From: Gloeobacter morelensis MG652769
GTDB taxonomy: Bacteria > Cyanobacteriota > Cyanobacteriia > Gloeobacterales > Gloeobacteraceae
Assembly: GCF_021018745.1 (NCBI RefSeq)
Contig: NZ_CP063845.1
Coordinates: forward strand, 3,100,001 to 3,164,000
Direction: 5' to 3'
DNA: 64,000 bases
A program made the position numbers and the translations under genes. Below are positions 34,799 to 47,614 of the stretch, in pieces (position 1 is the first letter of the stretch; each line of letters opens with the position of its first letter). The notes beneath the pieces are model-generated. The model saw nothing but the letters and a program-made list of their open reading frames with translations, was not told the origin of the DNA and made no database searches.

Positions 34799-36036
34799 TC
34801 ATACCTTTAGCCTTCCTTCGAACTCAATCATCAGCCGGTTCAAGGCAGGACGCCAGGCCCGAATCGGCATCGTCCACTTCTTCATCTGGTTTTGAACTGC
34901 CAAGTACACCATCTTTATCACCGACTCGTCATTCGGCATAATCCGGTGATTGCGACTGACTTTGCGGATAGTCATGTTCAGTGATTCTATCGCATTCGTC
35001 GTGTAGATTACCTTGCGAATGTCCTCACCAAATCGAAAAATTGGAATCACCCGTACCCAGTTCTCTCGCCACATGCGACTGACACTCGGATACTGCTTAT
35101 CCCACTTCTCGCTCAACAGTTCTAGATGTGATTCTGCTTCGTCTTCCGTCGCTGCACTGTAGATTGCTCGCAAGTCTGCACACAACGCTTTGCGGTCTTT
35201 CCATGACACATATTTGCACGAGTTCCTGACCATGTGCACCATGCATAATTGCACCAAACAACCGGGGTACACTGATTCAATCGCTTCCGGTAAACCAGTC
35301 AAACCATCCACACAGGCAATCAAAATATCCCTCAAACCCCGATTGTTCAACTCCGTCAGTAAACCCAACCAAAACTTTGCTCCTTCATGGGCCGAAAGCC
35401 AGATACCCAATAGCTCCTTCTGGCCCTCCATGTCTACACCCAGTGCCAGGTACACCGCCTTGTTCACCACCCGACCGTTGTCGCGCACTTTTACCTGCAA
35501 ACAGTCAAAATAGACGATCGGATAGACCGCTTCGAGCGGGCGGTTTTGCCATTGGCGCACCACATCCATCACCGCATCGGTGACATTCGAGATCAACGTC
35601 GGCGAGACCTCGACCCCATACATTTCCATCAGCTGCGCCTGGATATCTCGGGTGGTCATCCCGCGCGCATACAGCGCCAGGATCTTCTCATCGAGCCCCG
35701 CCAGACGGGTCTGACCTTTGCGCACCACGACCGGCTCGAACTCGGCATTGCGGTCGCGCGGCACGTTCAGTTCAACGGCACCGCATTCCGCTTGAATCGT
35801 CTTCTGGCTTTTGCCATTTCTGGAGTTGCCAGTGCCTTTGCCGGCGGCTTCGTGCTTTTTGTAACCGAGGTGGGTTTCCATCTCGGCTTCGAGAGCCCGT
35901 TCAATCACCGCCTTGGTTAATTGTTTGAGCAAACCGCCTTCACCGACAATGGTTTGCGGGTCGACCTGCCCCCCGAATGGGGGGTGCCGTCATAATCTTT
36001 GAGTAGTTCATCGAGGATCTCTTTGCGGATGGTCAT
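34799..36036 (-). pseudogene. IS256-family transposase, start codons out of frame at a palindrome
   Basis: The body (about 378 residues) is a mutator-type DDE transposase. It has YFDCLQVKVRDNGRVVNKA with the first Asp, IACVDGLTGLPEAIESVYPG with the second, and YTTNAIESLNMTIRK with the Glu. The expected N-terminus MTIRKEILDELLKDY begins at 36036 but is in another frame. The shift occurs at CCCCCCGAATGGGGGG (35969-35984). The body lacks a strong start of its own, so the copy is probably impaired. Confidence 0.82.
35969..35984. repeat. 16-bp palindrome at the IS256 transposase frame break
   Basis: CCCCCCGAATGGGGGG has a perfect 6-bp GC stem and 4-nt loop and marks the point where the first 15 codons lose frame with the rest. 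An insertion of 17, 20 or 23 bp would explain the shift. A clear flanking duplication is not visible. Confidence 0.55.
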
Positions 36037-44593: not shown

Positions 44594-45124
44594 CTAGTTG
44601 GGTTCCGTCGGCACCGCTCCCTGTTCCAGCCAGAGCGAGCGCCGGTCATAATCGATAGTCAGGCGGTAATGTTTCAAGAATGTGTAACCCAGCACTCCCG
44701 CCAGGGGACGCTTGAGAATCGCCTCGAAGGTGCCCAGATTCTGAACGATGGCCGCCTGACGGCGGGCGACGACCGGACCGATCTGAATGGTGTCGAGGTC
44801 CATGGTGGCGGCGCTCTGGGAGCGCGCCGAACCGATCCCCGACAGTTGCACCCGCTGAGCGCGCACCGGCAATCGGCGCTCGCGCACGAAGCGGTCGCTG
44901 AGCAAACTGACGCTCGCACCGGTATCGACGATAAAGGCGGCGGGAGGCCCTTGATTGATGCGCGCCTGGATGACGATGAGCCCGGCAATGCTCTCAAAGG
45001 GCACCTGGGCGGTCTGGGCACAGGCGGGAGCGGCGACCAAAACCCAACAGCAAGTCAGAAGCGGCCACCCTTGCCGCCTTACCATAGAAAAAATCCAGCC
45101 CACCCGGTTGCGCATCGCTCCCAT
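44594..45124 (-). CDS. Exported retropepsin-like aspartic protease
   Basis: A 176-residue protein with a Sec signal (GWPLLTCCWVLVAAPACAQT). The catalytic motif AAFIVDTGASVSLLS is a single retroviral-type D-T/S-G triad, so the active enzyme should be a dimer. VLGYTFLKHYRLTIDYDRRS near the C-terminus matches the second conserved block of this family. It is likely periplasmic. The ATG at 45115, three codons inside, is an alternative start. Confidence 0.82.
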   Translation of the reverse strand: MGAMRNRVGWIFSMVRRQGWPLLTCCWVLVAAPACAQTAQVPFESIAGLIVIQARINQGPPAAFIVDTGASVSLLSDRFVRERRLPVRAQRVQLSGIGSARSQSAATMDLDTIQIGPVVARRQAAIVQNLGTFEAILKRPLAGVLGYTFLKHYRLTIDYDRRSLWLEQGAVPTEPN

Positions 45125-45189
45125 TTAACATTAGTTTTCGGGGATTGCTGCGGGCCGGGACAACGGCCAATAATGTGAGCCGTGATGCT

Positions 45190-45209
45190 CCGTCAGCTAA
45201 AGCAGACGG
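45190..45209. repeat. Right-end hairpin of IS200/IS605 element
   Basis: CCGTCAGCTAAAGCAGACGG folds with outer arms CCGTC and GACGG. The tnpB stop codon lies inside it. In related elements this region, with the tnpB 3' end, encodes the guide (omega/reRNA) scaffold. Confidence 0.8.
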
Positions 45210-46348
45210 CTTCTGGAACAAAGCCGAGTATCCCCAGCCTTGACGTTCCCTGGCCGCATCCCGGCCAGCAGACCACGGTTCAGAATATTCCGAGCCGCGT
45301 TCTGGTCTCTGTGCAACGAACACCCGCAGGAACACTCATGCCAGCGAACCGAAAGCATTTTCTTCACTTCCAGCCCGCAGGCAGAGCACTCTTGCGAGGT
45401 GCCTCGCGCATTGACTCCCACCACCTGCACACCAGCTTTTTCAGCTTTGTGCGTCAGGATGAGCCGAAACTGGTACCAACCGGCATCGGCTATCGCTCGG
45501 GCCAGACAGTGGTTCCTGAGCATCCCTGCGATGTTCAAGTTCTCCACGGCTATCGCTCCGTAGCGCCGGGTCAATTCTCTCGAAACTTTGTGGTGGACAT
45601 CACGCCGGGTATTGGCCACCCTGGCGTGGACTCTCGCCACCTTGCGCCGCTGCTTAAGACGGCTTTTGCTGCCTCGCTTTTTGCGACTCAGGGAACGCTG
45701 CTCACGACGCAACCGCTTCAATTGGTGCTTGAGCGGCCGGACGGTTGGGACCGAAAAACCGTCCGCCGTGGTCAAAAAGCTCTCGATGCCGACATCAATG
45801 CCGGTGGCGGGCAAGGGGCTATCCGGGGCGTTCCAGCCCTCCACTTCGCAGGTGATGACGACGTACCACTTGCCGCCCTTGGTGAGAACGGTAACTGTCT
45901 TTGCCTCGCCCTCAGTCGGTCGATGCAAGTTGATGCGTACCAGGCCGATGCGCTGCAGCCGAAGCTTGCGACCCATCACCCGCACCCCGTCACCGAGGCT
46001 CGGATAGGTGAAACTGTCGAACCTGCTTCTGCTCCTGAAGCGGGGATATCCAGGCGTCTGTCCTGCCTTGATGCGTTGGAAGAACGCCGCAAAGGCTTTG
46101 TCCAGTCGCCGCATCGTCGCCTGGGCGCTGGAGAAGTTAAGAGCGGCAAACCAGGGATTGTCGGTCCGCTGGCTCTTGAACCAGGCGGACTGCTCGGTGT
46201 ACTTGAGTGTGCGCTTTTCGCTTTCATAGGCGGTCTTGCGCTGTTCGAGACAGTCGTTGTACAGACGACGGTGAGTTTCCAGGACAATCTCAAGCTCCCG
46301 CTCTTGACTCTTGTTGGGTTCGAGCCTGTACTTGAACGCCTGATACAC
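45197..46348 (-). CDS. tnpB: TnpB RNA-guided nuclease
   Basis: A 383-residue TnpB. The RuvC residues are all present: D185 in ATGIDVGIESF, E269 in AIAVENLNIAG and D348 in LHRDQNAARNI. The zinc finger CSACG with CSCGC lies between the second and third. The N-terminal OB-like/REC part (AFKYRLEPNKSQERELEIVL) is intact. TnpB cuts DNA next to the transposon-adjacent motif using an RNA from the element's right end. No stop or frameshift is seen, so it should be functional. Confidence 0.92.
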   Translation of the reverse strand: MYQAFKYRLEPNKSQERELEIVLETHRRLYNDCLEQRKTAYESEKRTLKYTEQSAWFKSQRTDNPWFAALNFSSAQATMRRLDKAFAAFFQRIKAGQTPGYPRFRSRSRFDSFTYPSLGDGVRVMGRKLRLQRIGLVRINLHRPTEGEAKTVTVLTKGGKWYVVITCEVEGWNAPDSPLPATGIDVGIESFLTTADGFSVPTVRPLKHQLKRLRREQRSLSRKKRGSKSRLKQRRKVARVHARVANTRRDVHHKVSRELTRRYGAIAVENLNIAGMLRNHCLARAIADAGWYQFRLILTHKAEKAGVQVVGVNARGTSQECSACGLEVKKMLSVRWHECSCGCSLHRDQNAARNILNRGLLAGMRPGNVKAGDTRLCSRSRLL

Positions 46349-46744
46349 TTACTTGCCCTTCTGTTGTTCGATGTACTTCTGAATCGTCTTTTCGCTCACG
46401 GCTCCAACGGTCGCAGCAAAGTACGACCTGGACCACGGCGTGGGCAGCCAGGTGGTAAGAGAGGCAAACTCTTTCCTGAGTACGCGGCTGGTGTAGCCTT
46501 TGATGCGATTGACGATCTCTGCTACGCCCCACCGAGGGTCAAATTCAACAAAGATGTGAACGCGGTCGGGCATTACCTTCAGGATGTGAATTGTCATTTC
46601 AAGCTCGGCTGCTTTTTGGTAAAGAAGCTCTTTGAGCCTGAGTTCAACAGGCCCGACAAGAACCCCGCGCCGGTACTTCGGACACCAGACCAGATGCAAC
46701 TTGAGACTGAAAACTGCCCCGGCGTTTCTTGCGTATCGCTCCAT
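46349..46744 (-). CDS. tnpA: IS200-type Y1 transposase TnpA with altered HUH motif
   Basis: A 131-residue single-strand transposase. The fold markers LHLVWCPKYRRGVL and the catalytic Tyr in TIQKYIEQQ are present. The HUH metal motif, normally HVH in this segment, reads R61-V62-H63 (MPDRVHIFVEF), so the first His is replaced by Arg through a CAC to CGC type change. This could abolish activity. tnpB starts one base after the tnpA stop. Confidence 0.88.
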   Translation of the reverse strand: MERYARNAGAVFSLKLHLVWCPKYRRGVLVGPVELRLKELLYQKAAELEMTIHILKVMPDRVHIFVEFDPRWGVAEIVNRIKGYTSRVLRKEFASLTTWLPTPWSRSYFAATVGAVSEKTIQKYIEQQKGK

Positions 46745-46808
46745 GCAAACATTATGCCCGTGACAGGAGGTTATTGTTATGCGTTGTAGACATTGCCCTC
46801 CAATTCCC

Positions 46809-46828
46809 CTGCCAGCTAAAGCAGGCAG
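46809..46828. repeat. Left-end hairpin of IS200/IS605 element
   Basis: CTGCCAGCTAAAGCAGGCAG folds with arms CTGCC and GGCAG around AGCTAAAGCA. It lies only 18 bp from the hisA start codon and pairs in sequence with the right-end hairpin. Confidence 0.8.
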
Positions 46829-46846
46829 TTCCCTTAGAGGTCACTG

Positions 46847-47614
46847 ATGGATATTATTCCTGCGATTGACATACTCGACGGCCGCTGCGTGCGCCTCTAC
46901 CAGGGCAACTACCAGCTTGCTGAGACCTACGGGGAGGACCCGGTAGCCGTTGCCTGCAACTGGGCGAAACTGGGGGCGCCGCGGCTGCACGTGGTCGACC
47001 TGGACGGTGCGCGCCAGGGGATGCCCGTGCACCTTGACGCCCTCGAAGCGATCGTCACCCAGGTGCCCTGCCCGGTGCAGTTCGGGGGTGGCCTGCGCAG
47101 CATCGAGGCGGTCAGCGCCGTGCTCGATCGCGGCGTAGACCGGGTGATCCTGGGCACCGCCGCGGTCGAAAATCCCGCGCTTATCCGCGAGTGCTGCGAG
47201 CGCTTCGGCGGCAGAATCGCCGTCGGCCTCGACGCGCGCGGCGGGCAGGTGGCGGTGCGCGGCTGGCGGGAAACCTCGGAAGTGGAGGTGACCGAACTGG
47301 CCGGCGAGATGGAAAAGCTCGGCGTCAGCGCCATCGTCTACACCGACATCCTCAAAGACGGTACCCTCACCGGTCCGAACCTGGTGGAGCTGCAGCGGCT
47401 CACCGACGCGGTCAAAGTGCCGATCATCGCCTCCGGCGGCGTGGGCACCCTGGCGGATGTGCTCTACCTGCTGGCGCTGGAGCCGCGCGGATTGCAGGGA
47501 GTGATTATCGGCCGGGCCCTCTACACGGGCGATGTCGATCTGGCCGAGGCGCTCAGGGCGGCCGGGCCGAGCCGCTGGCAGGATGTTCCCCCGGACGATG
47601 TGGCCTTCGCCTGA
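46847..47614 (+). CDS. hisA: Phosphoribosylformimino-5-aminoimidazole carboxamide ribotide isomerase
   Basis: A 255-residue TIM-barrel enzyme of histidine synthesis. The catalytic Asp pair is D8 in IIPAIDILDGRCVRL and the Asp in IVYTDILKDGTLTGPN. VQFGGGLRSIE and IIASGGVGTLAD bind phosphate. GAGGT at 46836-46840 serves as ribosome site. The IS200/IS605 left end lies just upstream, so the promoter must be inside or beyond the IS. The stop overlaps the next ATG. Confidence 0.94.
   Translation: MDIIPAIDILDGRCVRLYQGNYQLAETYGEDPVAVACNWAKLGAPRLHVVDLDGARQGMPVHLDALEAIVTQVPCPVQFGGGLRSIEAVSAVLDRGVDRVILGTAAVENPALIRECCERFGGRIAVGLDARGGQVAVRGWRETSEVEVTELAGEMEKLGVSAIVYTDILKDGTLTGPNLVELQRLTDAVKVPIIASGGVGTLADVLYLLALEPRGLQGVIIGRALYTGDVDLAEALRAAGPSRWQDVPPDDVAFA

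What the first reader, a model, noticed from the sequence alone, without database searches (positions are those of the whole stretch)
46555..46570. TnpA with HUH motif changed to RVH next to an intact TnpB
The first metal-binding His of the HUH motif is Arg, which should stop single-strand transposition. TnpB keeps D185, E269, D348 and its zinc finger. This may be an element fixed in place whose TnpB continues to cut DNA or has been put to another use.
Basis: partly seen in the sequence, partly recalled or inferred. Interest (0 to 1): 0.55.

Follow-up and report, generated by a model that had tools for sequence, protein, structure and literature searches.

The report
Jumping gene with a broken transposase
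A small mobile DNA element sitting just in front of a histidine-synthesis gene of a cyanobacterium carries a transposase that has lost a metal-binding residue and looks broken, beside an RNA-guided DNA-cutting protein that looks intact; this is a clear snapshot of a known kind of element losing its ability to move, not a new system.

Summary
TnpA (46349-46744, minus) reads RVH where homologues read HVH/HIH: Arg61 (CGC, 46562-46564) sits at IS608 His64. The first His is near absolute: 113 of 114 stop-free homologues, 60 of 61 in a census not chosen on this motif. TnpB keeps D185, E269, D348 and four zinc cysteines.

The element is 45182-46846 (1665 bp), in front of the hisA start codon, 3' of CCAT. 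Two sister species have the uninterrupted site, so the insertion is recent. TnpA has more residues unseen at conserved positions (E56K, L103P). The other two near relatives that lost a HUH histidine (YVH, HVS) are also burdened (p = 0.0016, 3 against 24), with the TnpB triad intact. Best reading: a decaying transposase in a recently inserted IS605-type element that keeps a probably active TnpB, on the way to a TnpB-only (IS1341-type) element. Repurposing is unsupported.

One thing remains odd: the nearest relative in the TnpA trees has YVH, and none of its four-member TnpB clade has an intact HUH TnpA. A shared, older loss cannot be excluded.

The parts
45182..46846 (-). whole element, 1665 bp, IS605 type (tnpA then tnpB in one direction)
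   Evidence: uninterrupted site in G389 and G390: GTGAGCC joined directly to ATGGATATT in G390
46847..46850 (-). target CCAT (read on the element's coding strand), here the reverse complement of the hisA start ATGG; insertion is 3' of it
   Evidence: empty site; same CCAT at left ends of relatives
46809..46828 (-). left-end hairpin CTGCC..GGCAG, with guide GGAA just 5' of it (46829-46832), which predicts CCAT by the IS608 pairing rule (rule recalled)
   Evidence: pairing worked out by hand
46349..46744 (-). tnpA, 131 aa, Y1_Tnp; R61 instead of His; H63, Y124, Q128 kept; E56K and L103P unseen in relatives
46556..46564 (-). RVH in place of HUH (Arg61 codon 46562-46564)
45197..46348 (-). tnpB, 383 aa, GTG start directly after the tnpA stop; D185, E269, D348, Cys 321/324/339/341
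45250..45268 (-). conserved hairpin over the tnpB 3' end, taken as part of the guide-RNA (omega RNA) scaffold by analogy with ISDra2
   Evidence: 3 of its 7 pairs change on both sides in 10 relatives, 98.6% of cells paired; RNA fold z = -3.43 for the last 150 nt
45190..45209 (-). right-end hairpin, guide GAAG 5' of it and cleavage motif TCAC (45182-45185) 3' of it
   Evidence: 4 of 7 pairs change on both sides
45162..45181 (-). host sequence next to the right end that would serve as TnpB guide (GGCTCACATT...), matching the empty site
   Evidence: role by analogy with ISDra2

Best explanation
An ordinary IS605-type element inserted recently, 3' of CCAT directly in front of hisA. Its transposase is decaying, probably since then: H61R removes a metal ligand of the HUH site, and E56K and L103P hit other conserved positions, so the element very probably can no longer excise or insert with its own TnpA. 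TnpB and its guide RNA, read from the right end into the flank, are intact by sequence and probably still cut empty copies of the site (CCAT as TAM, then GGCTCACATT...), which would favour cells and replicons that carry the element. It is on the way to a TnpB-only (IS1341-like) element. Shown: sequence, ends, empty site, conservation, pattern of unusual residues. Inferred: loss of transposition, its timing, TnpB cleavage, the direction of change.
For: First His in 113/114 and 60/61 homologues. Structural role of that His (PMC5934647 passage). AF2 model keeps the IS608 TnpA fold (mean pLDDT 84; best chain 2vju_B, Z 18.3, 112 aligned, rmsd 2.3, tied with other IS608 and ISDra2 chains), so this looks like damage to the active site, not a different protein. 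In 27 near-clade TnpAs, the three that lost a HUH His carry 3, 3 and 2 otherwise unseen residues at conserved non-catalytic positions, against 3, 2, five times 1 and seventeen times 0 in the other 24 (p = 0.0016). TnpB has 0 unseen residues at 46 conserved columns; the DED triad is present in all three lesioned elements. Empty site with 95-99% identical flanks in two sister genomes. Two relatives in other genomes show the same split: L009 tnpA in two frames and L016 tnpA Tyr to Phe, each beside a TnpB open frame. In another IS, inactivating TnpA did not remove the TnpB-driven advantage (PMC11870625 passage).
Against: The sister in the TnpA trees (L268/L396, 64% identical) also lost the first His, to Tyr (UFBoot 97; SH 0.88 in FastTree; 86.1/89 in a second tree), and the TnpB clade of four has no intact HUH TnpA in the stretches fetched: more than independent decay easily predicts (about 1 in 61 by my count). 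TnpA of that pair is no faster relative to TnpB than in His-bearing pairs, so there was no long decay. In the wider set, 11 of 114 TnpAs also have 3 or more unseen residues (3 of 98 in the closer part), so the load alone is not diagnostic. R99W, one of the three counted, is not unseen in the set. The clean TnpB is no proof of selection: 25 of 62 TnpBs are as clean, and few changes are expected since the insertion; two TnpB columns of 85% or more do deviate, with residues seen once elsewhere. TnpB breaks too: of 24 near-clade relatives with TnpB in reach, L405 has it in two frames and L385 shows a stop in the alignment, against 2 of 26 with a HUH loss, so 'TnpA goes first' is not shown by counts.
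Confidence: 0.72

Rival explanations
1. The first His was lost once, in the ancestor of the RVH (window) and YVH (viral-contig) elements, and TnpA has since been kept for a job that needs no HUH metal site (end binding, regulation) or works with altered metal binding.
For: Sister position in the TnpA trees, a shared TnpB clade with two members without TnpA, pS 0.92 against pN 0.26 between the two TnpAs, a TnpA/TnpB rate ratio like that of His-bearing pairs.
Against: Residues differ (CGC Arg, TAT Tyr: at least two steps apart, each one step from a His codon). Both carry other, different unseen residues at conserved positions, which a kept function does not predict. Only two sequences.
Confidence: 0.13
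2. Arg is tolerated and the transposase still works.
For: The element moved here recently, no other close TnpA is in the genome, Y124, Q128 and the second His are intact.
Against: No Arg in any other stop-free homologue examined; no second copy of the element in the genome; the one other RVH found (L034) is in a gene with a stop codon right behind the motif.
Confidence: 0.06
3. Sequencing or assembly error at the codon.
For: One assembly; single-base difference from His.
Against: Further unusual residues in the same gene; chromosome-sized contig.
Confidence: 0.04
4. TnpB has been repurposed by the host (for example as a regulator).
For: Transposase damaged, TnpB kept.
Against: Recent, absent from sister species; intact RuvC triad, unlike nuclease-dead regulators such as TldR (recalled); right end preserved.
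Confidence: 0.04

Closest known systems
IS608 (Helicobacter pylori), IS200/IS605 family
   Same: TnpA fold and sequence (phmmer 4.9e-34; Z 18.3), subterminal hairpins with short guides, insertion 3' of a tetranucleotide
   Different: target CCAT instead of TTAC; first metal His is Arg
ISDra2 (Deinococcus radiodurans)
   Same: tnpA followed by tnpB; TnpB homologous over most of its length (1.6e-52) with the RuvC triad
   Different: TTGAT target (PMC8612924 passage); intact HUH TnpA (recalled)
IS1341-type (TnpB-only) elements
   Same: TnpB with element ends; many near relatives here have no TnpA beside TnpB (37 of 48 distinct)
   Different: the window element still carries a full-length tnpA frame
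YVH element on eight IMG/VR contigs (L268-L274, L376)
   Same: sister in the TnpA trees and in the same TnpB clade: TnpA 64%, TnpB 55%; first His lost; TnpB DED intact
   Different: Tyr not Arg; on viral contigs; one genomic site

Membership tests
IS200/IS605 family, IS605 type | Y1 transposase of the TnpA_IS200 kind | tested here: met
   PF01797 1.3e-37, NF033573 3.2e-39, above cut-off
IS200/IS605 family, IS605 type | HUH motif in TnpA | tested here: not met
   RVH; so it is an IS605-type element with a defective active site, not a canonical active one
IS200/IS605 family, IS605 type | single catalytic Tyr and the Gln four residues on | tested here: met
   Y124, Q128
IS200/IS605 family, IS605 type | TnpB with RuvC triad and zinc ribbon | tested here: met
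   NF040570 1.8e-89; D185/E269/D348, Cys
IS200/IS605 family, IS605 type | subterminal hairpins; insertion 3' of a fixed short target, no target duplication | tested here: met
IS200/IS605 family, IS605 type | transposition by single-strand excision and insertion | not testable with these tools
   needs a bench assay; the recent insertion only shows that it moved once, by whatever TnpA
IS1341 type (TnpB only) | no transposase gene | tested here: not met
   full-length tnpA frame present
domesticated TnpB (TldR-like regulator) | loss of RuvC catalytic residues (definition recalled) | tested here: not met
   triad intact

The most novel reading that the evidence does not exclude
A lineage of IS605-type elements (window RVH, viral-contig YVH, and two TnpB-only relatives) gave up the HUH metal site of TnpA before its members diverged, yet kept the TnpA frame under purifying selection and still spread between a cyanobacterium and viruses: TnpA would act without its canonical metal ligand, or only as an end-binding partner of TnpB, with TnpB or a foreign TnpA doing the moving.
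Probability: 0.1. Interest if true: 0.7.

Novelty: new member of a known kind. Interest (0 to 1): 0.33.

Why it matters
Whether TnpB-only elements are autonomous or decayed IS605/IS607 copies is called unclear in PMC9956272 (passages; the authors lean towards independent evolution of theirs). This element and its relatives show the intermediate states in one small group: intact TnpA, TnpA with one HUH His lost, and no TnpA, each beside a TnpB with its catalytic triad. That makes the route directly testable. For the single locus it is a modest, orderly result.

Tried and rejected
Rejected: RVH as a common tolerated form (no other stop-free homologue has it). Rejected: long neutral decay of TnpA in the RVH/YVH pair. 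Dropped: that the whole TnpB neighbourhood lacks intact TnpA; L472, L474 and L483, TnpBs of 54-57% identity, have HVH partners. Rfam found no family at 44900-47000, E up to 1. No further member of the RVH/YVH pair was found in viral contigs (8 loci, all this element; best 80 of 110 kept; 67 loci). In plasmids the best hits to the YVH TnpA and TnpB lie below 60% identity (1372 and 3613 records, 15 listed each); their motifs were not read, nor those. Genome contigs gave one relative, L009; metagenome contigs were not available. Literature: the listings showed no title on a natural TnpA without its HUH His, and one search found no paper; only open-licence papers are searched; of five papers I saw passages, of none the whole text.

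Idea that the element seeks start codons: the target CCAT is the complement of ATGG, and several insertions abut a gene start, but a simple test (open frame of 60 aa or more from ATGG) gave 16 of 32 left ends (a few of them duplicates) against 363 of 902 control sites, so no clear enrichment. A stricter hand reading (also an in-frame stop within 20 codons upstream at the empty site) counts 5 of 11 against 78 of 902; it was made after seeing the data and not pursued.

Counts not used: one search took the natural stop for a stop and was replaced; L298 (chimeric-looking) and L284/L285 (right end not found) were left out of the hand reading. The set includes loci chosen on MPDHVHL (108 stretches, 80 of them listed), so the census is the fairer one.

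Full report
What is there. On the minus strand at 46744-45197 lie tnpA (131 aa) and tnpB (383 aa, GTG start directly after the tnpA stop). tnpA matches Y1_Tnp (1.3e-37) and the IS200/IS605 model NF033573; tnpB matches the guided-TnpB model (1.8e-89). The motif reads MPDRVHIF: Arg61 = CGC at 46562-46564. In the alignment with solved IS608 TnpA, Arg61 takes the place of the first His of the HUH motif, Tyr124 and Gln128 that of the Tyr-Gln pair. In the IS608 complex the metal is held by H64, H66, D61 and Q131 (PMC5934647, passages seen). The genome carries PsaA/PsaB (2 matches; among 14 control genomes only Synechococcus has a match), so it is a cyanobacterium; the genus, perhaps Gloeobacter, is recalled and not established. 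The gene right of the element is hisA (TIGR00007 above cut-off).

How unusual. Of 118 distinct homologue rows, 114 have no stop; at position 61 they read 113 His and 1 Pro. Because part of that set had been fetched with a pattern containing MPDHVHL, I made a second census with N-terminal patterns only (110 relatives, best 80 kept): 61 distinct TnpAs, 60 His and 1 Tyr at position 61; at position 63, 60 His and 1 Ser. In 386 genomes of the same phylum, 70 pattern matches gave 68 His and 2 Arg, one of which is this gene and the other not a TnpA. The only other RVH seen in a TnpA, L034, is in a gene with a stop right behind the motif.

The element and its age. In two same-genus genomes (G389, G390) the flanks run together without the element, at 95-99% identity: GTGAGCC|ATGGATATT in G390. 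The element is therefore 45182-46846, 1665 bp, inserted 3' of CCAT on its coding strand, which is the reverse complement of the ATGG that begins hisA. Hairpins lie 18 nt inside the left end and 8 nt inside the right end. The four bases before each hairpin, GGAA and GAAG, predict CCAT and TCAC by the pairing rule of IS608 (rule recalled), and these are the bases found; relatives with GGGGA before the hairpin also sit at CCAT, though CCAT was part of the pattern used. This genome has one copy of the element and three other TnpAs of 33-36% identity, all HVH. Two further left ends exist, one on a 330-bp element without tnpA or tnpB (which also has the right end) and one on the 172-kb contig before a different TnpB.

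State of the two genes. AlphaFold2 gives TnpA the IS608 fold (mean pLDDT 84; 2vju_B Z 18.3, rmsd 2.3, 112 aligned, tied with other IS608/ISDra2 chains). Besides H61R it has E56K and L103P, unseen in both homologue sets, and R99W, unseen in the second set only. Among 27 near-clade TnpAs (59% identity or more, this one included), three have lost a HUH His: this one, L396 (the L268 element, YVH) and L406 (HVS). Leaving out the catalytic columns, they carry 3, 3 and 2 unseen residues at conserved positions; the other 24 carry 3, 2, five times 1 and seventeen times 0 (Mann-Whitney p = 0.0016). The one with 3 (L405) also has its TnpB in two frames. In the wider set the load is less distinctive: 11 of 114 have 3 or more (3 of 98 at 38% identity or more). 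TnpB of the window has no unseen residue at 46 conserved columns, as have 25 of 62 relatives; D185, E269, D348 and four zinc Cys are present. In 10 relatives (the window and the 330-bp element included) the scaffold hairpin has 3 of 7 and the right-end hairpin 4 of 7 pairs changed on both sides; 97.9% of cells pair, against 79.2% in shuffles (the structure was drawn from the window).

Relatives. Selecting on TnpB, 37 of 48 distinct relatives have no TnpA beside them. The sister TnpA belongs to one element seen in eight viral contigs of identical sequence, thus one site: TnpA 64%, TnpB 55%, motif YVH, codon TAT. RVH and YVH are sisters in the TnpA trees (UFBoot 97; SH-aLRT 86.1/UFBoot 89), although His-bearing TnpAs reach 71% raw identity to the window. 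In the TnpB tree the window, YVH and two TnpB-only elements (L265/L461, L266/L463) form a clade (99.9/100; 100/100); none has an intact HUH TnpA. Outside it, L472, L474 and L483 have HVH partners while others have none. Two relatives outside the viral set, L009 (a Solirubrobacterales MAG, tnpA in two frames) and L016 (tnpA Tyr to Phe), also pair a damaged tnpA with an open TnpB frame. Of 24 near-clade relatives with TnpB in reach, L405 and perhaps L385 have a broken TnpB, so counts do not show that TnpA breaks first.

Interpretation. Independent decay explains the extra unusual residues, the one-step codon changes and the normal TnpA/TnpB rate ratio of the pair (0.72; 0.42-1.00 over all 36 pairs). 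One shared, older loss explains why the sister is also without the first His; by my count the chance that the one non-His TnpA of 61 would be the sister is about 1 in 61. But a shared loss needs a kept function, since long neutral decay is excluded by the same rate ratio, and it does not predict the other lesions. I put 0.72 on decay and 0.13 on a shared loss (moved slightly from 0.74 and 0.12 when the wider set and the TnpB breaks were counted in). TnpB cleavage of the empty site is inferred from ISDra2 (PMC8612924, passages). That TnpB can help an element even with TnpA inactivated is reported for plasmids (PMC11870625, passage). PMC9956272 (passages) calls it unclear whether TnpB-only elements are decayed IS605 copies; this group is a place to test that.

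Limits. One assembly is held for the window's species. No copy close enough for a dN/dS on the R61 branch was found. The lack of damage in TnpB is expected anyway for so recent an insertion. The statistic rests on three copies, and the thresholds (59% identity, 80% columns) were mine.

Noticed in passing
window 46765-46849: Read outward, the left end carries AGGAGG, a 22-codon frame (MRCRHCPPIPLPAKAGSSLRGH) and a TGA that overlaps the hisA ATG (TGATG), as if to couple translation of hisA to the element. The same frame ending in TGATG is at the other two left ends of this genome, though one of those ATGs opens only 37 codons.
   Followed up: partly
left ends of relatives: L089, L275, L280, L283, L293: Several insertions 3' of CCAT abut what looks like a gene start (ATGG). 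Enrichment over other CCAT sites is unclear.
   Followed up: partly
G000 C1:3056480-3056812 (L092:981-1313): A 330-bp element with the same left and right ends and part of the scaffold but no tnpA or tnpB; it could lend TnpB another guide.
   Followed up: partly
G000 C2:100409 (L089:609 onward): A different, TnpB-only element on the 172-kb contig with the same left end, in front of a gene that looks like an HlyD-type protein (by eye).
   Followed up: partly
L406:2501-2893: A near TnpA with HVS (second HUH His lost) beside a TnpB with intact triad.
   Followed up: partly
L092:225-284: A 60-bp repeat with 14 further copies at 95% identity listed in this chromosome.
   Followed up: no
window 34802-35881, minus: An IS256-family transposase (NF033543, 1.1e-126).
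   Followed up: no
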